DNA from: Anodontia alba
Lineage: Eukaryota; Mollusca; Bivalvia; Lucinida; Lucinidae
Direction: 5' to 3'
Length of the DNA stretch: 64,000 nt
Assembly: GCA_964016985.1 (NCBI GenBank)
Contig: OZ024824.1
Location: 124,532,803-124,596,802, forward strand
Both the position numbers and the translations under genes were made by a program. Below, in pieces: positions 1,701-61,958 of this stretch; within the stretch, counting starts at the first letter, position 1, and each line of letters opens with the position of its first letter. A model generated the notes under the pieces. The model had not been told where the DNA came from, ran no database searches, and saw nothing but the letters and a program-made list of their open reading frames with translations.

Positions 1701-1834
1701 CCTAGAGAATGGTAAGGTTAACAGGCGCGTTTACAATTTACAATTTAACTGAACACAGAGACACATTTAGATTTCCTAAAATCCACTTCAAACACTTGGT
1801 TTAGAGTATTCTAATAATATTAACATATACACTT

Positions 1835-2060
1835 TGTTACGACCGAGCACTCCTACCTTCGATTATCTGCCTTGGCAGATTACGCATAGCATCTAAGTAT
1901 ATATTCAATCTCTGACAACTGCGTCAGAGAGTCGACTCTTTGGCTCAGTGGTTAGAGCATTGGATTTTTATCCGGGAGGACCCGTGTTCGATTCCCACGA
2001 AAGGCGGAATATTTTTTCAGCTATGCTTCATTCCTTTGTTACGAATTTCATGTCGTAAGA
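1835..2060 (+). repeat. 5' LTR of the miniature element
   Basis: Begins TGTTACGACCGAGCACTCC and ends TGTCGTAAGA. It is identical to the second LTR over most of its length; differences sit in the tRNA-like region and the last 20 bases. The sequence TCTGACAACTGCGTCAGAGA, just upstream of the tRNA-like part, is itself a short hairpin. Confidence 0.85.
1934..2006 (+). tRNA. tRNA-Lys-like sequence inside 5' LTR (pseudo-tRNA)
   Basis: Contains an A box TGGCTCAGTGG that matches the Pol III consensus and a B box GTTCGATTCC. The D stem GCTC/GAGC is intact. The anticodon arm is imperfect, with a T-rich loop, and the T arm has one extra base compared with the downstream copy. A T6 run at 2012-2017 would serve as a Pol III terminator. 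The acceptor stem pairs only partly, so I do not call it a functional tRNA gene. Confidence 0.6.
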
Positions 2061-2078
2061 TGGGGGCTCGTCCGGGAT
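2061..2078 (+). promoter_or_regulatory. Primer binding site, tRNA-Pro type
   Basis: TGGGGGCTCGTCCGGGAT lies directly after the first LTR. It equals the well-known 18-nt complement to the 3' end of tRNA-Pro used as minus-strand primer by some LTR elements. Position and exact length make chance unlikely. Confidence 0.85.
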
Positions 2079-2130
2079 TGGACTTTATACGCCGAAAATG
2101 GCTTCACATCATCATAAATGATGACTTCCT

Positions 2131-2155
2131 TGAAGAGGAGGTGGGGGGGGGGGTG
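2131..2155 (+). promoter_or_regulatory. Polypurine tract before 3' LTR
   Basis: GAAGAGGAGG followed by a T and a long G run sits immediately upstream of the TGTTAC start of the second LTR. This is where the plus-strand primer of an LTR element is expected. Confidence 0.75.
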
Positions 2156-2380
2156 TGTTACGACCGAGCACTCCTACCTTCGATTATCTGCCTTGGCAGA
2201 TTACGCACAGCATCTAAGTATATATTCAATCTCTGACAACTGCGTCAGAGAGTCGACTCTTTGGCTCAGTGGTTAGAGCATTGGATTTTTAACCGGGAGG
2301 ACCGGGTTCGATTCCCAGGAAAGACGGAATATTTTTTCAGCTATGCTTCATTCCTTTGTTACGGCTTTAATGTAGTAAGA
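2156..2380 (+). repeat. 3' LTR of the miniature element
   Basis: A direct repeat of 1835-2060, beginning TGTTACGACC and ending TGTAGTAAGA, followed at once by ACTT. The differences from the first LTR are mostly single substitutions plus one single-base indel in the tRNA-like part. Confidence 0.85.
2255..2326 (+). tRNA. tRNA-Lys-like sequence inside 3' LTR (pseudo-tRNA)
   Basis: The better preserved of the two copies, and it folds as a 72-nt cloverleaf. Acceptor GACTCTT pairs with GAAAGAC (five of seven counting one G-T). The D stem GCTC/GAGC is perfect, and the T arm CCGGG-TTCGATT-CCCAG pairs four of five. The 7-base anticodon loop TTTTTAA puts TTT (Lys) at 34-36, but the stem has two mismatches. 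A box TGGCTCAGTGG and B box GGTTCGATTCC match the Pol III consensus exactly. T6 at 2332-2337 is a potential terminator. It could be a captured tRNA or a promoter module derived from one. Confidence 0.65.
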
Positions 2381-2496
2381 ACTTCAAAAAGAAATCGCTC
2401 TAAACTTACTGTTTCTGTCGCTTTGTTCAATGAAAAATCAGTCCAGCTAAAAAATGCCTTTGCAGGTATACGAAGCTTTTTAAATGGGAGCTATTC

Positions 2497-3908: not shown

Positions 3909-4694
3909 ACAGTTTTTGTATTAGAAACTGTTATCGTAGAGAATAGCCATTCATAAATGAGAAAATAACGCGGTTATAGAGATATCTTGACTAATTCTTG
4001 AACAGCATATGGTGTATGTAAAATAAGTGGTTGTTACTGTTTTATTCCTTATGTTGCTGCTTGCTGTCATATTTGTTTTATTGTTTTTAAAATAAAGCAC
4101 ATGGCTCACAGTAAACATCACAGTCCATGAAACTTGGAAAAAATAAACATGGAGGTGAAATGTTTTTGTTTTTTTTTGTTTTTTTTTTTGTTTGGTCTGT
4201 TTTTGTTTTTTGTTCATTTTGTTTGTTTGTTTGTTTGTTTTTTGTTGTTGTTGTTGTTTTTTTTATTTTTTTTTTTTTTTGTTTTTTTGTTTGTTTGTTT
4301 TTTTGTTTTGTTTTTATGAACACAGCGCTAAACCCATTCAAAGCATCCCACATCGAGCTATGTAAACAGTTTATATAGTGTAACATTGATCAAACGCCAA
4401 AAAATACAGTGTCTGATCACTGTGTGCGCTGTTTGCCATGATATTTGCTTTTAAGAATCTGGATCTTGCACTTTAAACCGCCAAATTTCTAAATACTATC
4501 CTTTCCCTTTAACCCCTTTCTGTGTCACAGACAAAAATAAGACTATTTTGCTGTTGGACATTCAGTGTTTGTAATTTAGAAGCAACAGATAGCTTGTTAA
4601 AAAAAAAATGTAGACGACCATTTCCAACTGAAATTTCACTCCATGATTAATCCTTATAAGCTTGAACTACCCATTTCAAGAACAAATGTCTATG
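3909..4694. other. AT-rich stretch with T/G low complexity
   Basis: No gene seen. From 4158 to 4314 the + strand is almost pure T with single G interruptions; open frames on both strands there are artefacts of composition. Around 4325-4440 lies a weak trace of the 'GTAAACAGT...CTGATCA' hairpin repeats. The rest is unremarkable. Confidence 0.7.
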
Positions 4695-4966
4695 CATCAC
4701 GGAAACATGCCTATATAATTTTAACCCCCTTAAACCCCACTTTTATATAGTAAAACTGGGGTTTACATATATTATTTTTCTTATTTTTGCTCAAAAAACA
4801 TAGATTGTTGGTACTCGTTAGAACCGCCTCGCCGAGGCGGTTCGAACGAGTACCAACAATCTATGTTTTGAGCAGAAATATGAAAAATATCACAAATTTT
4901 TATCTGACATTTTTCAGTTTTTGGAGGTGAAGTTTTCTATATTTGAATAGGCGTGTTTTCGTAATG
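4695..4966. mobile_element. Palindromic MITE, family P copy 1
   Basis: Family P elements are about 275 bp with terminal inverted repeats CATCACGAAAACATGCCTAT / ATAGGCGTGTTTTCGTAATG. One arm has its own small hairpin (AACCCCACTTTTATATAG / GTAAAACTGGGGTT). The centre is a long palindrome around GTTAGAACCGCCTCGCC. This copy has all three parts. The orientation (AACCCC arm first) is the same as in most copies. Confidence 0.85.
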
Positions 4967-6818: not shown

Positions 6819-7098
6819 CATTACGAAAACACGCCTATTCAAATACACTGAACATTTTACCACCAAAAAATAGCAATTTTTTCACCCAAAAAAATCTGAT
6901 ATTTTCCATGTTTCTGCTCAAAACATAGGTTGTGGGTACTCGTTAGAACCGCCTCGTCGAGGCGGTTCTAACGAGTACCACAATCTATGTTTTTGAGCAG
7001 AAATAACAAAAATAATGTATACCCCTGGAAACCCCAGTTTTACTATATAAAAGTGGGGTTTAAGGGGGTCAAATTTATATAGGTATGTTTTCTTGATG
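6819..7098. mobile_element. Palindromic MITE, family P copy 3 (reverse orientation)
   Basis: Starts CATTACGAAAACACGCCTAT and ends TAGGTATGTTTTCTTGATG. The AACCCC hairpin arm is on the right, so it is inverted relative to copy 1. The central palindrome around AACCGCCTCGTCGAGGCGGTT is intact. Confidence 0.85.
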
Positions 7099-7189
7099 GA
7101 ACTCAATTTCCAAAGATACCACAATCGACCCAATGATCACAAAGGAAACAAAAATATAATCTACACTAAAACTTCTTTCTTAAATGAAA

Positions 7190-7536: not shown

Positions 7537-8762
7537 GTTTGCGTCTTTTCACATTTTAAGTGGTCTTTTAATGCTACACGCAACATTTTAAATGGTCTTT
7601 CTTTGCTACTCGCAACATTAGAAGTTTGCTTTTTATTACTATATGCAGCATTTTAAGTGGTCTTTCTTTTGCTACACGCAACATTATAAGTTGTCTTATT
7701 TTAATGCACACGTAGCATTATAAGTAGTTTTTATTACACAACAGCAACACTATAAGTGGTCTTTTTATGCTACATGCAACATTTACAGTGTTTTTTTTGT
7801 TGTTTTTTTTTGTTTTTTGTTTTGTTTTTTTTTTGCTACACGCAACATTATTAATGATCTTTTTAATGCTACAGATAACATTATAAGCGGTCTTTTTTAC
7901 GCTTAATCTATTTTTAAGTGATCTATGCTATGCTACTGGAATCATTGTAAGAGGTCACTTTTATGCTACAGGCAACATTATAGGCGGTCTTTAAATTCGC
8001 TACACGCATCATTTTAAGTGGTCTTTTTTTATGTTACATGCAACATTTTAAGTGCTTTTTTATTCAACATGCAACAATATTAGTTGGCTTTCTTATGGTA
8101 AATGCTGCGTTTAAGTGGTCTTTTTTAATGCTACATGCAACATTATAAGTGATTTTTTTATGCTACATGCAACATTATATTGGCCTTTTTATGCTACACA
8201 CAACATTAGAACAAAATGGTCTTTTTATGCTACACGCAACATTGTAAATGGTCTTTTATATGCTACCCGCAACATTACAAATGATCTTTTTTAATGCTAT
8301 AAGTATAATTTTAGTGGTCTTTTTATGCTGCATGCAACATTTAATTACATGCAACGTTATAACTGATCGTTGCTACATGTAACATTTTAAGCGGTCTTTT
8401 TATGCTTCATGCAACATTATAAGTGGTCTTTTATATGTTACACGCAACATTATAAGAGAGTTGTTATGCTATACGCAAAATTTTAGTGGTCTTTTTTAGC
8501 GACATGCAACATAACAAGTGGGCTTTTTTAAGCTACACGCAACATTATAAGTGACCTTTTTATGGTACACGCAACATGTTACGCGGTCTTTTTAATGCTA
8601 CACACATTATGTGATCTTTTTTTATGCTACATTCAATGCTACATTCAACATAATAATAAATAGTCTTTTATATGCTTTTATATGCTTCATGCAACATTAT
8701 AAGTGGTCTTTTTCATGCTACATGCAACATCAGAAGTGTTACTTTTATGATACATGCAACAT
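7190..8762. repeat. ~33-bp minisatellite with embedded poly-T
   Basis: About 45 diverged units of 'TATGCTACACGCAACATTAT' plus 'AAGTGGTCTTTT', spacing mostly 31-36 bp. Poly-T/G blocks at 7471-7535 and 7785-7835 interrupt the array and look like expansions of the T-run inside the unit. The array ends directly at an ATAATA microsatellite. Open frames at 7471 and 8611 are artefacts. Confidence 0.88.
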
Positions 8763-12159: not shown

Positions 12160-13965
12160 TAATAATAATAACAGAAACTGAAAGATTTGTAACAAGATAG
12201 TGAAAATATTCACAGGCTTGTGAGACGTGGGAGAAACTGAAAGCCATTAAGAGAAACTGAAAGACGTTTAGCAAGATAGTTATAGCATATAAAGGGCTGA
12301 GAAACTTGGGAAAATGTTCTCCGGCCGTTAAGAGAAAGTAAAAGTCTTGTAACAAGGTAGTGACGGTATAGACAGGGCTGTGAAATTTGGGAGAAACTGG
12401 GTTAATAAGGGAAAGTGAAAGACGTGCAACAATACAGCGATATTATAAAAAAGGGCTGTGAAATCGAGAGAATGTTCTCCAGCCATTACGAGAAACTGAA
12501 TAACGCGTAACAAGATAGTGATAGTATTCGCAGGGCTGTGAATCGTAAAAAATGTTCTCCAGCCATTAAAATGAAACTGAAAGACGTGTAACAAGATAAT
12601 GATAGTATCCACAGTGCCGTGAAATTTGGGAGAATGTTATCCAGCCATTACGAGAAACCGAATAACATGTAACAAGATAGTGAAAGTAGTCACAGGGCTG
12701 TGAAGCGAACACTTGAGAGGATGTTAACCAGCCATTACGAGAAACTGAATAACATGTAACAAGATAGTGAAAGTAATCACAGGGCTGTGAAGCAAACACT
12801 TGAGAGGATGTTAACCAGCCATTACGAGACACTGAATAACCTGTAACAAGATAGTGAAAGTAATCACAGGGCTGTGAAGCAAACACTTGAGAGTATGTTA
12901 ACCAGCCATTACGAGAAATTGAATAACATGTAACAAGATAGTGAAAGTAATCACAGGGCTGTGAAGCAAACACTTGAGAGGATGTTAACCAGCCATAACG
13001 AGAACCTGAATAACATGTAACAAGATAGTGAAAGTAATCACAGGGCTGTGAAGCAAACACTTGAGAGGATGTTAACCAGCCATAACGAGAAACTGAATAA
13101 CATGTAACAAGATAGTGAAAGTAATCACAGGGCTGTGAAGCAAACACTTGAGAGGATGTTAACCAGCCATAACGAGTAACTGAATAACATGTAACAAGAT
13201 AGTGAAAGTAATCACATGGCTGTGAAGCAAACACTTGAGAGGATGTTAACCAGCCATAACGAGAAACTGAATAACATGTAACAAGATAGTGAAAATATTC
13301 ACAGGCTGTGAAGTGAACACTTGGAAGACTGCTATCCAGCCATTATGAGAAATTGAAAAGTCTTGTGACAAGATAATGATAGTATTCACATGACTGTGAA
13401 ACTTGGGTGAATGATCTCTGCCCATTATGAGAAACTGAAAGACATGTAACAAAATAGTGATAGACTTCACAGGGCCCTGATACTTTGGAGAAACTGAAAT
13501 GCATTTGAAGAAAACGACAGACATGTCAGAAGATAGTCATAGTATTCACAGGTCTGTGAAGAATAGGAGGATGATCTCCAGCCATTAAGATAAACTTAAA
13601 GACGTGTAAGAAGATAGTGATCGTACTTACAGGGCTCTGAAACTTCTGAGAATGTTCTCCGGCCATCAAGCGAAACTGAAAGACGTGTAACCATTTAATG
13701 CTTTTATTCACATGGCTGTGAACCTTGGGAGAATGTTCTCCGTTAATTAGGAGAAACTGTAAAATGTGTTACAAGATAGTGATAGCATATACAGGGCTGT
13801 GAAACTTTGGAAAATGTTCTCCGACCATTGAGGGAAACTGAAAGACGTGTTACAAGATAGTAATAGTATATATAGGTAAATGAAACATGGGAGAAACTTA
13901 AAGCCATTAAGTGAAACGACGTAGAATAAAATAACGATAGTATTCACAGGTCTGCATTTATCAGT
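12160..13965. repeat. 80-87 bp minisatellite with homogenised 87-bp core
   Basis: About 21 units. The core has ACTTGAGAGG-type starts at 12711, 12798, 12885, 12972, 13059, 13146 and 13233, exactly 87 bp apart, then 86 to 13319. Flanking units are ~80-82 bp and much more diverged (ATGTTCTCCAGCCATTA... AACAAGATAGTGATAGTATT... CACAGGGCTGTGAA). Since 87 is divisible by three, the minus strand stays open as a 222-residue frame (12566-13234) with a 29-residue repeat. That frame closes where the unit length changes, so I treat it as non-coding. Confidence 0.92.
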
Positions 13966-17639: not shown

Positions 17640-17913
17640 CATTACGAAAACACGCCTATTCAAATATATTGAAAATTTCACCACCAAAAACTGAAAGTTT
17701 TTAGATAAAATTTTGATATTTTTCATATGTCTGCTCAAAACATTGATTATTGGTACTCGTTTGAACCGCCTCGGCGAGGCGGTTCTAACGAGTACCCACA
17801 ATCTATGTTTTGAGCAGAAATAAGAAAATAATGTATACCCCTGTAAACCCCAGTTTTACTGTTTAAAAATGGGTTTAAGGGGGTCAAAATTATATAGGCA
17901 TATTTTCATGATG
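17640..17913. mobile_element. Palindromic MITE, family P copy 5 (reverse orientation)
   Basis: CATTACGAAAACACGCCTAT to ATAGGCATATTTTCATGATG. Central AACCGCCTCGGCGAGGCGGTT intact. Confidence 0.87.
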
Positions 17914-18256: not shown

Positions 18257-18535
18257 CATCACGAAAACATGCCTATATACTTTTGACCCCCTTAAACCCC
18301 ACTTTTATACAGTAAAACCGGGGTTTACAGGGGTATACATTATTTTTCTTATTTCAGCTCAAAAACATAGATTGTGGGTACTCGTTAGAACCGCCTCGGC
18401 GAGGCGGTTCTAACGAGTACCCACAATCTATGTTTTAATCAGAAATATGAAAAATATCAGAATTTTTTATCAGATAATTTTCATTTTTTGGTGGTAAAAT
18501 TTTCAGTATATTTGAATAGGCGTGTTTTCGTAATG
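18257..18535. mobile_element. Palindromic MITE, family P copy 6
   Basis: CATCACGAAAACATGCCTAT to AATAGGCGTGTTTTCGTAATG. The central stem, CATAGATTGTGGGTACTCG / CGAGTACCCACAATCTATG around AACCGCCTCGGCGAGGCGGTT, is perfect. This is a good reference copy for the family. Confidence 0.9.
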
Positions 18536-28854: not shown

Positions 28855-29134
28855 CATTACGAAAACATGCCTATTCGAATATACTGAAAATTTTACCATC
28901 AAAAAATGAAATTTTTCAGATAAAAGAAATCTGATATTTTTCATATTTCTGCTCAAAACATAGACTGTGGATACTCGTTAGAACCGCCTCGACGAGGCGG
29001 TTCTAACGAGTACCCACAATCTATGCTTTTGAGCAGAAATAAGAAAAATAATGTATACCCCTGTAAACCTCACTTTTACTATATAAAAGTGGGGTTTAAG
29101 GGGGTCAAAATTATATAGGCATGTTTTCGTGATG
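28855..29134. mobile_element. Palindromic MITE, family P copy 8 (reverse orientation)
   Basis: CATTACGAAAACATGCCTAT to ATAGGCATGTTTTCGTGATG. Central stem intact (AACCGCCTCGACGAGGCGGTT). The small hairpin arm lies on the right. Confidence 0.9.
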
Positions 29135-29593
29135 GACTCTGTCGTAACATAGGTCAAGGCCAACCTAGAGTCAGCATTGGTAGTACTTTGCAACCTTATG
29201 CCACATGTCAAATTTCAGCGGACAACCCTTTTAAAGATTACACAATGTTACACATGTAAATAACCCAGGGACAAGATCAGTTAATCCCCGAGGAACAAAA
29301 CAGAATTTGTATTGTACCTATTGTTGGCATTTTCATACGTACTAGTAGAAAAAATTTCATGCTCAGCTATGTTTTTGCCAGAAAAAAATTGCAGTTTTTA
29401 GTAATTTGGAATTTATCAGAATTAAAACACTGACAGCACTGCTAGGTCCTGAACGGAAATTTAAGACTGTTTCATTTAACCTTAACTTCCTGTAATTTAA
29501 GCAAACAATGCAGACCCCGTTTCCTGATTCAAGAAGGGCAGTGGTCAGTCTCTGGTGAAAGAACGTGCACACAGTACTGTTTAAAAGCTCAGA
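29135..29593. other. Gene-free stretch with shared dispersed segment
   Basis: AAAACACTGACAGCACTGCT ... GACTGTTTCATTTAACCTTAAC resembles AAAGCACTGACAGCACTAGT ... CTGTTTCACTTACCCCTTAAC at 2990-3080, and weakly 47915, so an old repeat family is present. No gene. Confidence 0.5.
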
Positions 29594-31072: not shown

Positions 31073-31351
31073 CATTACGAAAACACGCCCATTCAAATAT
31101 ATAGAAAATTTCACTTCCAAAAAATGAAAATTTTCAGATAAAAAACTATGATATTTTTCATATTTCTGCTCAAAACATAGATTGTGGGTACTCGTTAGAA
31201 CCGCCTCTGTGAGGCGGTTCTAACGAGTACCCACAATCTATGTTTTTGAACAGAAACGATAAGAAAAAAGTATACCCCTGTAAACCCCAGTTTTACTATA
31301 TAAAAGTGGGTTTTAAGGTGGTCAACATTATATAGGCATGTTTTCGTGATG
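31073..31351. mobile_element. Palindromic MITE, family P copy 10 (reverse orientation)
   Basis: CATTACGAAAACACGCCCAT to ATAGGCATGTTTTCGTGATG. AGA is found on both sides (before CATTACG and after GTGATG), a possible but weak target duplication. Confidence 0.88.
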
Positions 31352-38699: not shown

Positions 38700-40085
38700 T
38701 TTAAGCTGTTAGCAAATTTTGAAATTGTTGAAAAGTTGATTCTCTATTCAGCGATGGACACCGTATGCTTTGTACATCTCTGCGTACATCAGCCTCTTCC
38801 GAACGTGAAACTAATGAGTTAAAAATGACAGACGCATTCCGATCCGAAGTGGTATGAAAGATATTCATTTCGGAGTTTTATAAATATAGACAGTATCAAC
38901 GACATTCATAGGTTATTATCAGAGAATGCTCACAATAAAGTAATAGTAAATCAAGCAATTGATATTTTAGGTAATATATTCCAGGAAGCACGTATAAAAG
39001 CTTTCTCTAGAAAACGCTCCAACTTGAGGTACTAAGGATCATACAAAAAAAAGCAAACCTTGGTATGGGCCCCAATGCAAAACGGCAAGTATCATGTAGC
39101 TAAAAAATGATATAACCAAATTAAAAGCCTTGCTGGTAAAAATAATTTGATTTATTTCAGTAAAGAATATAAGAAGACAATGGATAAATTTATTTCTAAA
39201 TATAAAACAGATACTGAATAAAAGTTGAGGAAAATGCATCTTCAAAACCTAAAGACTACTGGAAATTACTACGTAGTTTAAAATCGCACTCGACAAAAAA
39301 ATACACCGAGCATAGATGAATTTTTGGAACATTTTAAATTAATTAACCAAACACATCATGATGAATAAGAAACAATTAATTTTGAATCAGAGTATGATAA
39401 TGAATTTTTAAATGCTAGAATAACAAGAGATGACATTCTGAGAAGTGCTAATAAATTGAAAAATGGGAAGGCATCCGGCTATGAATCTGTATTAAACGAA
39501 TATATTAAATCAACAAAACAAGTTTTGCTTCCAGTATATGAAACTTTATTTAATATTATATTTGACACGGGCTTTTTCCCCAAACAGTTAACAATAGGCA
39601 TTATAAAGCCGATTTACAAAAATAAGGGTGATATATAAATGACGTTGCTAATTTTCTACCAATTACAATTCTTAGCTGTCTGGGAAAATTATTTACGTCT
39701 ATTCTAAATGATCGTCTTACTAATTATCTGGAGGAAGCGATGCTTTTATCAGAAAACCAAACGGGTTTTAGAAAACTGTATTCAACACTTGACCTCATAT
39801 TTTCACTTAATGCAATTATTGAAATTTTGAAACATCGGAATAAGTTGTTTTGCTACTTTGTGGAATTTTCCTCTGCTTTCGACTCTGTACGAAGGGCAGG
39901 TCTATGGCAAAAAATACTAAAATCTGACATTAATGGTAAGATCTTTAAGGTGATTTATAACATGTATAATGATATTAAATCTTGTATATCCCAATAGGGA
40001 TGTTTCAGCCTTTTTTGAAAGGTCATGTGGGACAAGATTTTGAAAACCTCTCTCCTGTGTCTTTTTTTCGATTTACTTGAACGAC
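38700..40085 (+). pseudogene. LINE ORF2 linker and reverse transcriptase
   Basis: The linker (INDIHRLLSENAHNKVIVNQ...) is broken by several stops. RT blocks are clear: NARITRDDILRSANKLKNGK ASG, GIIKPIYKNKGDI, ITILSCLGKLFTSILNDRLT, ENQTGFRKLYSTLDLIFSLN, FVEFSSAFDSVRRAGLWQKI, then a decayed DVSAFFERSCG block. In motif A the first Asp, usually in 'DFSKAFD', is Glu. The YxDD motif is not reached. Inactive. Confidence 0.85.
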
Positions 40086-46905: not shown

Positions 46906-46961
46906 CTACTGGCCTGAACGGGCTTGTCTGGCCAAGAAATCTTAGACTCTCAAGCCTCATC

Positions 46962-47240
46962 CATCACGAAAACACGCCTATATAATTTTGACCCTCTTAA
47001 ACCCCACTTTTATATAGTAAAACTGGGGTTTACAGGGGTATACATTATTTTTCTTATTTCTGCTCAAAACATAGATTGTGGGTACTCGTTAGAACCGCCT
47101 CGCCGAGGCGGTTCTAACGAGTACCCACAATCTATGTTTTTGAGCAGAAATATGAAAAAATATCAGAGTTTTTATCTGAAAATTTTCAGTTTTAGGAGGT
47201 GAAATTTTCTATATTTTCGAATAGGCGAGTTTTCCTAATG
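46962..47240. mobile_element. Palindromic MITE, family P copy 14
   Basis: CATCACGAAAACACGCCTAT to ATAGGCGAGTTTTCCTAATG. All arms intact, central stem perfect. Confidence 0.9.
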
Positions 47241-54522: not shown

Positions 54523-54798
54523 CATCACGAAAACACGCCTATATAATTTTGACCCCCTCAAACCCCACTTTTATAGTAAATCTGGGGTTTACACGGGTAT
54601 ACATTATTGTTCTTATTTCTGCTCAAAACATAGATTATGTGTACTCGTTAGAACCGCCTCGCTGAGGCGGTTCTAACGAGTACCCACAATCTATGTTTTG
54701 AGCAAAAATAAAAAAAAATTCAGAGTTTTTTTTTCTGAAAATGTTCAGTTTTTGGAGGTGAAATTGTCTATATACTTAAATAGGCGTGTTTCTTAATG
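54523..54798. mobile_element. Palindromic MITE, family P copy 15
   Basis: CATCACGAAAACACGCCTAT to ATAGGCGTGTTTCTTAATG. Central palindrome perfect (AACCGCCTCGCTGAGGCGGTT). Confidence 0.88.
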
Positions 54799-59155: not shown

Positions 59156-61958
59156 TTTAGCTCACCTGAGCCGAAGGCTCATGGTGAGCAATTGTAATCA
59201 CTCACCGTCCGTCGTCGTCGTCGTCGTTGTCGTTGTCGTCGTCGTCGTCGTCGTCGTCCGGATGTCCGTCTGTCCACAATCTTAAACAACATCTCCTCCT
59301 ACACCGCTGATGGGAATTTGACGAAACTTCACAGGAATGATCCTTGGTTGATTCTCTTTCAAAGTTGTTCAAATGGTTTCGGTTCATTGCATATCTAGGT
59401 CACAGGAGCTAAAAATAGATTTTTAATAAAAAAAAAACTTAAAAAATCTTCTTGTCCGATACCACTGGACCGATTTCAATATAATTTTGCAATAATGTTC
59501 CTTTGGTGATCCTCTAACCAGATTGTTCAAGCCATCTGGATTCGTCAAAAAACATGGCCGCCAGGGGGCGGGGCTTATTTTCCGCATATATCTATATAGA
59601 AAACTTTAAAAATCTTCTTGTCCGAAACCACTGGACCGAATTCAATATAATTTTGCAAAAATGTTCCTTTGGTGATCCTCTACCAAGATTGTTCAAGCCA
59701 TTTGGATTCGTCAAAACAGGGCCGCCAGGGGGCGGGGCTTATTTTCCCTATATATCTACATAGAAAACTTTAAAAATCTTCTTGTCAGAAACCATTGGAC
59801 CGATTTCCATATTATTTTGCAAAAATGTTCCTTTGGTGATCCTCTTGCAAGATTGTTCAAGCCATCTGGATTCGTCAAAAAAAAATGGCCGCCAGGGGGC
59901 GGGGCTTATTTTCCGTATATATCTATATAGAAAACTTTAAAAATCTTCTTGTGAGAAACCACAAGACCGATTTCAGTACAATTTTGCAGAAATGTTCCTT
60001 TGGTGATCCTCTACCAAGATTGTTCAAGCTATTTGGATTGGTAAAAAAAACATGGCCGCCAGTGGGCGGAGCTTATTTTCTCTATATAGCTACATAGAAA
60101 ACTTAAAAAATCTTCTTGTCAGAAACCACTGGACTGATTACCATATAATTTTGCAGAAATGTTCCTTTGGTGATCCTCTACCAAGATTTTTCAAGCCATT
60201 TGGATTCGTCAAAAAACATAGCCGCCAGGGGGTGGTGGGGCTTATTTTCCCTATATATCTATATAGAAAACTTAAAAAATCTTCTTGTCAGAAACCACTG
60301 GAACGATTGCAGTATAATGTGGCAGAAATGTTCCTTTGGTGATACTCTACCAAGATTATTCAAGCCATTTGGATTAGTCAAAAAACATGGCCGCCAGGGG
60401 GCGGGGCTTATTTTCCCTATATATCTATATAGAAAAACTTGAAAAATCTTCTTGTTAAGAAACCACTGGACCGATTTCATTATAATTTGGCAAAAATGTT
60501 TCCTTGGTGACCCTCTACCAAGATTGTTCAAGTAATCATGATTTGTCAAAAAACATGGCCGCTAGGGGGTGGAGCTTATTTTCCGTATATATCTATATAG
60601 AAAACTTGAAAAAATCTTCTTGTCAGAAACCACTGGACCGATTTCAATATACCTTGGCAGAAATGTTTCCTTGATGACCCTTTACCCAGATTGTTCAAGC
60701 CGTCATGATTTGTCAAAAAATATGGCTGGTAGGGGCGGGGCTTATTTTCCCTATATATATCTATATAGATAACTTGAAAAAATCTTCTTGTCAGAAACCA
60801 CTTGATCGATTTTGAATATAACTTGGCAGATATGTTTCCTTGGTGACCCTTTACCAAGATTGTTCAAGCTATCATGATTTGTCAAAAAACATGGCTGGTA
60901 GGGGGCGGGGCCTATTTCCCCCGTATATCTACATAGAAAACTTCAATGATCTTCTTGATTGATTTCAATTTAACATTGCAGAAATGTTTCTTATGTAACC
61001 CTCTATCAAGGTTATGCAAGCCGTCATGATTCATCAAAAAACAGGGCTGCCAGGGGGCGGGGCTTATTTTCCCTATATATCTATATAGAAAAACTTTAAA
61101 AGTCTTCTTTTCAGAAACCACAGGACCGATTTCATTACAACTTGGCAAAAATGTTTCCTTGGTGACCCTCTACCAAGATTGTTCAAGTAATCATGATTTG
61201 TCAAAAAACATGGCTGCTAGTGGGTGGGGCTTATTTTCCCTATATATCTATATAGAAAACTAAAAAATCTTCTTGTCAGAAACCAATGGACTGATTTCAA
61301 TATGTTTCTTTGGTGACCTTCTACCAAGGTTGTTCAAGCTGTCATGATCATCAAAAAACATGACCGCTAGGGGGGCGGGGCTTATTTTTCCCTATATGAC
61401 TATATAAAAAAAACTTTAAAAATCTTCTCGTAAGAAACCGTTGGACTGAGCTCAATGTAGCTTGGCAAGAATGTTGCTGTTGTGATCCTCTACCAGGATG
61501 GTTCAAGCCTTCATGATACGTTAAAAAACATGGCCTCCAGGGGGCGGGGCTTATTTTCGGTATATATCTGTATAGAAAACTTTAAAATGCTTCTTGTCAA
61601 ATACATCCTGACCAATTTCAATAATGCTTTGGTGACCCTTTAATAAGGATGTTCAAGCAATCCTGATTTGTCAAAAACCATGCCTGCTAGGGGGTGGGGA
61701 TTATTTTCCCTCTACATCTAAATAGAAAACTTTAAAAATCTTCTTGTCAGAAACCACTGAACCAATTTTAGTTTAACTTGGCAGGAATGTTCTCTGGTTA
61801 CCCTCTACCAAGTTTGTTCAAGCTGTCATGATTCGTCGTGGTTATAAAATTTATACATAAATCTTAGAGCAGTGAACTTGGCTGAAACTTCAACATTCAG
61901 TACGCAAATCTGTTTGCACAGGTGAGCGATATAGGACCATCATGGTCCTCTTGTTTTT
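59156..61958 (+). mobile_element. Hairpin-ended element with ~165-bp tandem array, family V
   Basis: The left end is a hairpin, GCTCACCTGAGCC-GAA-GGCTCATGGTGAGC (59160-59189). A GTC-rich microsatellite (59208-59270) follows. Then come about 14 tandem units of 160-167 bp (see next entry), a non-repeated tail (TGGTTATAAAATTTATACAT ... GCACAGGTGAGCGATATAGG), and a terminal hairpin AGGACCAT-C-ATGGTCCT (61933-61949) followed by CTTGTTT. A relic of the same right end lies at 28149. No coding capacity; open frames follow the repeat. The type of transposition is unknown. Confidence 0.7.
59550..61850. repeat. ~165-bp tandem array
   Basis: Unit markers: ATGGCCGCCAGGGGGCGGGG, CTTATTTTCCCTATATATCT, AAATCTTCTTGTCAGAAACC, ACTGGACCGATTTCAATATA, AAATGTTCCTTTGGTGATCC, CTACCAAGATTGTTCAAGCC. 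Starts of GGCCG at 59556, 59720, 59887 and 60054. Units near the right end are more diverged and some are shortened. Frames repeating 'NLLVRNHWTD' come from this unit. Confidence 0.93.

What the first reader, a model, noticed from the sequence alone, without database searches (positions are those of the whole stretch)
1831..2384. Miniature LTR element whose LTRs carry a tRNA-like Pol III unit
Seen: LTRs of 226 and 225 bp, TG..GA ends, 4-bp direct duplication ACTT, an 18-nt tRNA-Pro-type primer site with no gap, a purine tract, and a 95-bp interior. In each LTR there is a tRNA-Lys-like sequence with exact A box TGGCTCAGTGG, a B box (exact consensus in the 3' LTR) and a T6 run 6 bases after it. 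Known: plant Cassandra TRIMs carry 5S rRNA in their LTRs, a Pol III promoter inside an LTR. I know of no animal element with a tRNA in the LTR. Inference: this is an independently evolved TRIM type with tRNA-driven LTR transcription, or one formed by fusion of a SINE head to an LTR. A Pol III transcript starting and ending within the LTR could not template a full element, so the module may act in another way (pseudo-R region, insulator, or tRNA-derived RNA source).
Basis: partly seen in the sequence, partly recalled or inferred. Interest (0 to 1): 0.92.

Follow-up and report, generated by a model that had tools for sequence, protein, structure and literature searches.

The report
Helenus-type mini LTR element with tRNA
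This is a 546-base, gene-less mobile element whose two repeated ends each carry a tRNA-like sequence; it matches a kind published in 2024 as Helenus, and the tRNA-like part likely serves as its own RNA polymerase III promoter.

Summary
It is a family, not one copy: three protein searches listed 230 proteins that are chance translations of related copies. Of 9 copies with both flanks readable, 6 fit a 4-bp target duplication, against 8 of 72 swapped pairs (1 of 20,000 permutations).

Two things I add. A 63-nt hairpin (z -6.4) in each LTR pairs the tRNA 5' half with an inverted near-copy just upstream, and is largely kept in closer relatives. The two LTRs of this copy carry two different family haplotypes, so it is a mosaic.

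Most likely mechanism (inferred): Pol III starts in the 5' LTR, sometimes reads through the first T6 and ends at the second, giving a template with a tRNA-like R region for Gypsy-type machinery.

The parts
1831..1834 (.). target site duplication ACTT, left
   Evidence: In related copies 6 of 9 readable flank pairs fit a 4-bp duplication.
1835..2060 (+). 5' LTR, 226 bp, TGTTACG...GTAAGA
1898..1903 (+). TATA-like motif in the 5' LTR (2219 in the 3' LTR)
   Evidence: Pattern match only
1903..1965 (+). 63-nt hairpin in the 5' LTR; right arm is the tRNA 5' half, left arm an inverted near-copy
   Evidence: -32.5 kcal/mol, z -6.40, 0 of 200 shuffles as good; inverted match also
1938..2003 (+). tRNA-like sequence of the 5' LTR, A box at 1941, B box with one mismatch at 1985
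   Evidence: Rfam RF00005 20.3 bits, below the gathering score; motifs
2012..2017 (+). T6, predicted Pol III terminator of the 5' LTR
2061..2078 (+). primer binding site of tRNA-Pro type, directly after the 5' LTR
   Evidence: tRNA-Pro identity recalled; primer-site motif in either of two frames in up to 119 of 230 related proteins by loose pattern, exact MGARPG in 57
2061..2155 (+). interior, 95 bp, no room for genes
2132..2155 (+). polypurine tract region at the end of the interior
   Evidence: Read directly
2156..2380 (+). 3' LTR, 225 bp
2224..2286 (+). 63-nt hairpin in the 3' LTR, same sequence as in the 5' LTR
   Evidence: -32.5 kcal/mol, z -6.40
2255..2326 (+). tRNA-like sequence of the 3' LTR, A box 2262, exact B box 2305-2315
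   Evidence: Rfam RF00005 31.3 bits; ARAGORN, type undefined
2332..2337 (+). T6, predicted Pol III terminator of the 3' LTR and end of the predicted full template
2381..2384 (.). target site duplication ACTT, right

Best explanation
This is a Helenus-type TRIM, a 546-bp gene-less LTR element with a tRNA-derived sequence in both LTRs, predicted to be transcribed by RNA polymerase III and likely moved by the proteins of a Gypsy-type element. Inferred cycle: Pol III uses the A and B boxes of the 5' LTR and starts near 1930. Most transcripts would stop at the T6 of the same LTR (about 88 nt). A minority would read through and stop at the T6 of the 3' LTR (about 408 nt), so that the RNA begins and ends with the same tRNA-like R region. 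A tRNA, probably tRNA-Pro, then primes reverse transcription at 2061, the R repeats allow the strand jump, the purine tract primes the second strand, and a borrowed integrase inserts the copy with a 4-bp duplication. Shown here: anatomy, family, LTR ends, 4-bp duplications. Inferred: Pol III use, start site, read-through, Gypsy partner, primer identity.
For: Complete LTR anatomy with duplication. tRNA model match and A-B-T modules in both LTRs. Family in three protein searches: 47 of 230 proteins hold a tRNA-part motif, a primer-site motif and the interior end joined to an LTR start (regular expressions, order not enforced). 4-bp duplications 6 of 9 against 8 of 72 swapped. Conservation of translated positions in the 120 proteins: A-box side 2054 of 2449, B box 848 of 1417, T6 580 of 840, but only 413 of 1113 between B box and T6. 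No AATAAA or ATTAAA in the element. The published features of animal Helenus agree. Read-through of T6 terminators is described as frequent (PMC5356446, passages).
Against: No RNA data. T6 is not kept better than the rest of the LTR 3' end (U5 2530 of 3425 against T6 580 of 840), so its conservation alone does not show function. A T5 run in the anticodon region of both LTRs could stop Pol III early, and a TATA-like motif would also suit Pol II. The tRNA score of the 5' LTR, the one that must act as promoter, is below the gathering score and its B box has a mismatch. 3 of 9 copies do not fit a 4-bp duplication. No Gypsy partner was seen, and the genome search did not complete.
Confidence: 0.75

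Rival explanations
1. Same element, but the template RNA is made by Pol II from the TATA-like motif upstream of the tRNA-like part, and the tRNA-like sequence is a passenger left by a SINE.
For: TATA-like motif at 1898 and 2219, about 30 bases before the predicted start; the 5' LTR tRNA-like part scores only 20.3 bits.
Against: No AATAAA or ATTAAA in the element. A-box side kept (2054 of 2449) while the acceptor stretch is not (413 of 1113), as expected of a promoter, not a passenger. The TATA block is less well kept than the arm next to the A box in the second protein group (59 of 126 against 111 of 144).
Confidence: 0.17
2. The LTR unit mainly makes a short structured RNA (hairpin or tRNA-derived fragment) that acts in the host, and full-length mobilisation is secondary.
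For: Strong 63-nt hairpin, z -6.40; its left arm is kept in two protein groups.
Against: If Pol III starts near 1930, most of the left arm of the 5' LTR lies outside the transcript. Primer site and interior end are kept, which mobilisation explains and this does not. The mir-885 match (E 0.77, 18.2 bits, gathering score 66) is at chance level.
Confidence: 0.04
3. A plain tandem duplication of a tRNA-like repeat that imitates an LTR element.
For: Two direct repeats 321 bases apart.
Against: Single-LTR copies occur: four of the six fitting flank pairs have one LTR. At most 35 different left flanks and at most 34 right flanks join at the same ends. Duplications of 4 bp and no other tested length: 3 bp 0 of 9, 5 bp 2 of 9.
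Confidence: 0.01

Closest known systems
Helenus (TRIMp3; Kojima 2024, PMC10886601), animal and especially bivalve families
   Same: TRIM of similar size, tRNA-derived sequence with A and B boxes in both LTRs, primer site and purine tract, 4-bp duplications; tRNA-Pro is among the reported primers of bivalve families and tRNA-Lys-TTT is the tRNA they were aligned with.
   Different: Cannot be matched to a named family, since the consensus set is in supplements and Repbase, not available here. The LTR hairpin is not described in the main text held ('hairpin' and 'inverted' occur 0 times; supplements not seen).
Cassandra (plant TRIM with 5S rRNA in the LTRs)
   Same: Pol III promoter and terminator inside the LTR; LTR self-complementarity is predicted for its RNA (PMC7215508, passages).
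   Different: 5S rRNA, not tRNA; plants.
Ajax (nemertean TRIM with part of 5S rRNA in the LTRs)
   Same: Same plan with another small RNA.
   Different: 5S-derived; 5-bp duplications.
biv-TRIM of bivalves (Satovic 2019, PMC6934838)
   Same: TRIM in bivalves, single terminal repeats occur (abstract and passages).
   Different: No canonical primer site was found there; 'polymerase III' occurs 0 times in its main text. Sequences were not compared.
tRNA-derived SINE (SINE2)
   Same: tRNA-derived Pol III promoter; the proposed source of the LTR unit.
   Different: SINEs have no LTRs, primer site or integrase-type duplication (general knowledge).

Membership tests
Helenus | TRIM: two LTRs, short, no proteins (311-1263 bp reported) | tested here: met
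   546 bp, LTRs 226/225, interior 95 bp; range
Helenus | tRNA-derived sequence in the LTRs with boxes A and B | tested here: met
   Rfam 31.3 bits in the 3' LTR, 20.3 bits (below the gathering score) in the 5' LTR; boxes
Helenus | primer site next to the 5' LTR, complementary to a tRNA | tested here: met
   Position read directly; tRNA-Pro complementarity recalled, no tRNA set searched
Helenus | polypurine tract before the 3' LTR | tested here: met
Helenus | 4-bp duplication in animals | tested here: met
   ACTT; 6 of 9 related copies fit, 3 do not
Helenus | multi-copy family with solo LTRs | tested here: met
   230 listed proteins; single-LTR copies with both flanks. Seen through chance translations only
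Helenus | sequence match to a named Helenus consensus | not testable with these tools
   Supplements and Repbase not available
Helenus | Gypsy partner sharing the primer site | not tested
   The genome search did not complete; 9 chosen window ORFs gave no Gypsy domain
Helenus | Pol III transcription (expected, not validated in the paper either) | not testable with these tools
   No RNA data; motifs only
Cassandra / Ajax | 5S rRNA sequence in the LTR | tested here: not met
   Rfam lists tRNA and no 5S rRNA in 1700-2500 up to E 5
SINE | no LTRs, no primer site | tested here: not met

The most novel reading that the evidence does not exclude
The LTR hairpin is a position switch. Pol III would start inside its left arm, so the tRNA-like sequence at the 5' end of the RNA lacks a partner arm. 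In the 3' LTR the whole upstream arm is transcribed and locks the tRNA 5' half into a hairpin, hiding that end of the template from tRNA-processing enzymes. This would explain how a tRNA-promoted LTR element keeps its RNA from being cut as a tRNA.
Probability: 0.13. Interest if true: 0.55.

Novelty: new member of a known kind. Interest (0 to 1): 0.3.

Why it matters
The striking anatomy is real and already has a name. What can now be tested in any Helenus-bearing animal: a hairpin that covers the tRNA 5' half, and a concrete read-through model for how an element with a Pol III terminator in both LTRs can still make a template. Elements of this kind inflate tRNA gene counts (reported in the Helenus paper) and are stored as predicted proteins in public data, as the 230 listed hits show.

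Tried and rejected
Copies inside the window: none besides the two LTRs by blastn. Exact 32-mer of the tRNA-like core in viral contigs: 0. Other RNA families in 1700-2500: besides tRNA only matches far below their gathering scores. Functional tRNA: not favoured; the predicted short transcript folds no better than shuffles (z 0.43, -0.52 and -0.00) and ARAGORN gives no type. Gypsy partner in the window: among 9 chosen ORFs the only Pfam match above its cut-off is RVT_1 at 39632-39994, which I take for a LINE remnant (judgement). LTR divergence as a clock: rejected, because at four linked sites the 5' LTR has the haplotype of 4 related LTRs and the 3' LTR that of 13 others, of 31 classified. That a 5'/3' LTR difference recurs as a rule was considered and dropped: the reading frame that an ORF must keep biases which copies are seen.

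Limits of the counts. The sorting of 230 proteins into groups (59 and 5 set by eye, the remaining 166 as group 1) is mine. One search used the 120 proteins and can count a copy against both LTRs. For one search, one search listed 11 candidates; I dropped 4 (P0050, P0051, P0060, P0073), whose left side is element interior, and added 2 by eye (P0076, P0175), making 9. One search used 188 matches in 165 of 230 proteins, picked by likeness to the arms, so its pairing figures lean towards the hairpin; group 3 (26 of 51 decided cells, best slid version 0.46) does not support it.

Full report
Observation. The window holds a complete short LTR element at 1835-2380 with ACTT on both sides. LTRs are 226 and 225 bp and 95.6% identical. 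The interior is 95 bp; its first 18 bases are a primer site of tRNA-Pro type (identity recalled) and its end is a purine tract. Each LTR has an A box, a B box starting 43-44 bases further on, and a T6 run. Rfam's tRNA model matches at 31.3 bits in the 3' LTR and at 20.3 bits, below the gathering score, in the 5' LTR. By one fixed A-B-T4 pattern no other such module occurs in the window on either strand.

Is it a family? The genome could not be searched (ten unanswered requests). I searched the protein database with a chance ORF through the element (121 hits, 120 listed) and with two proteins so found. Together 230 different proteins were listed, none with a name from its source. By interior and LTR motifs I set apart by eye a second group of 59 (48 of them listed with two contigs) and a distant group of 5; the remaining 166 are group 1. 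47 of 230 hold a tRNA-part motif, a primer-site motif and the interior end joined to an LTR start (regular expressions, order not enforced). One search lists 37 left and 36 right flank strings; at least P0071 and P0090, and P0083 and P0204, are element interior, so at most 35 and 34 are true flanks.

Target duplications. For 9 proteins both flanks of a copy can be read (choice told under Tried and rejected). Enumerating codons, 6 of 9 own pairs allow an identical 4-mer, against 8 of 72 swapped pairs; 1 of 20,000 permutations reaches 6. For 3 bp it is 0 of 9, for 5 bp 2 of 9. Of the six, four have one LTR and two have two (my reading). P0141, P0153 and P0175 do not fit.

What is kept. In the 120 proteins, identical translated codons are 2054 of 2449 on the A-box side, 848 of 1417 at the B box, 580 of 840 at T6, but 413 of 1113 between B box and T6. 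Other parts are also well kept: 1171 of 1303 at LTR positions 29-48 and 2530 of 3425 in U5. So T6 does not stand out from U5, and the 29-48 block is unexplained. The contrast between A-box side and acceptor stretch fits a promoter better than a working tRNA, as the Helenus paper also concludes.

Known kind. Kojima (2024, PMC10886601; I read parts 1-4 of 6 of the text, the figure and table section, the Conclusions and passages) named TRIMs with tRNA-derived sequence in the LTRs Helenus. Animal Helenus make 4-bp duplications; bivalve families were aligned with tRNA-Lys-TTT, use tRNA-Pro among other primers, and share primer sites with Gypsy elements. The features that could be tested here are met. 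The host of the window is not identified; a pteriomorph bivalve would fit that paper but is a guess. In the held library, 'Helenus' with retrotransposon gave 3 papers and 'TRIMp3' 4 papers. Apart from Kojima's paper, one is a 2026 meeting report that mentions Helenus in passing (passages); the others, judged by their titles, are unrelated.

Mechanism. Passages of a Pol III review (PMC5356446) say that read-through is common, averages about 10% on yeast tRNA genes, and that of genes with over 25% read-through more than 60% have 6T as their longest signal. A T6 in both LTRs would thus allow a short product (about 88 nt if the start is near 1930, which is assumed) and a template ending at the T6 of the 3' LTR (about 408 nt), with the tRNA-like sequence as R. 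No AATAAA or ATTAAA is present. A T5 in the anticodon region and a TATA-like motif are complications. There are no RNA data.

Hairpin. LTR positions 69-131 fold into 27 pairs at -32.5 kcal/mol (z -6.40, 0 of 200 shuffles). The right arm is the tRNA 5' half with the A box; the left arm is an inverted near-copy just upstream. In the second group the eight codons before the A box are kept (111 of 144) while the block further upstream is not (27 of 143); in group 1 the contrast is small in one frame (594 of 664 against 752 of 880) and larger in the other (303 of 440 against 166 of 436). Decided pairs formed are 1509 of 1716 in group 1 (slid versions 0.23-0.58), 157 of 204 in group 2 (0.28-0.55) and 26 of 51 in group 3 (0.31-0.46, not convincing). 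The main text of the Helenus paper has no 'hairpin'. Cassandra RNA is predicted to be self-complementary in its LTRs (PMC7215508, passages). The function of the hairpin is open; the switch in the novel case is a proposal.

Mosaic. Of 31 LTRs classified at four linked sites, 13 have the haplotype of this copy's 3' LTR, 4 that of its 5' LTR, and 4 more differ from the latter at one site; the other 10 have further combinations. Nine of the ten differences between the two LTRs lie in the last 90 positions. Since the two LTRs of a new insertion are identical (general knowledge), gene conversion or recombination between copies is the likely cause, and the 4.4% difference should not be used to date the insertion.

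Verdict. A true, well-formed, multi-copy element of a kind published in 2024.

Noticed in passing
protein hits P0001-P0230: Chance translations of this element family are stored as predicted proteins in public data; they are not genes, and their flanks can be used to read target duplications.
   Followed up: yes
LTR positions 29-48 (window 1863-1882 and 2184-2203): A short palindrome (ATCTGCC TT GGCAGAT) in the 5' part of the LTR lies in the best-kept block of group 1 (1171 of 1303 codons); its role is unexplained.
   Followed up: no
e.g. 4692-4966, 6819-7100, 17640-17913, 18257-18535, 28855-29136, 31073-31351, 46960-47240, 54523-54798: A dispersed repeat of about 280 bp in both orientations, roughly 84-93% alike between copies in the self-comparison.
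   Followed up: no
12174-13876 and 59434-61837: Two tandem arrays, units of about 87 bp and 167 bp.
   Followed up: no
7551-8631: Tandem array of a 33-bp unit, about 33 copies, 65% matches.
   Followed up: no
39632-39994: Reverse transcriptase fragment (Pfam RVT_1, E 7.9e-11), taken for a LINE remnant.
   Followed up: partly
2537-2618: Inverted repeat, arms 35 nt, 89% complementary, 12 nt apart, just downstream of the element; could be a small foldback element.
   Followed up: no
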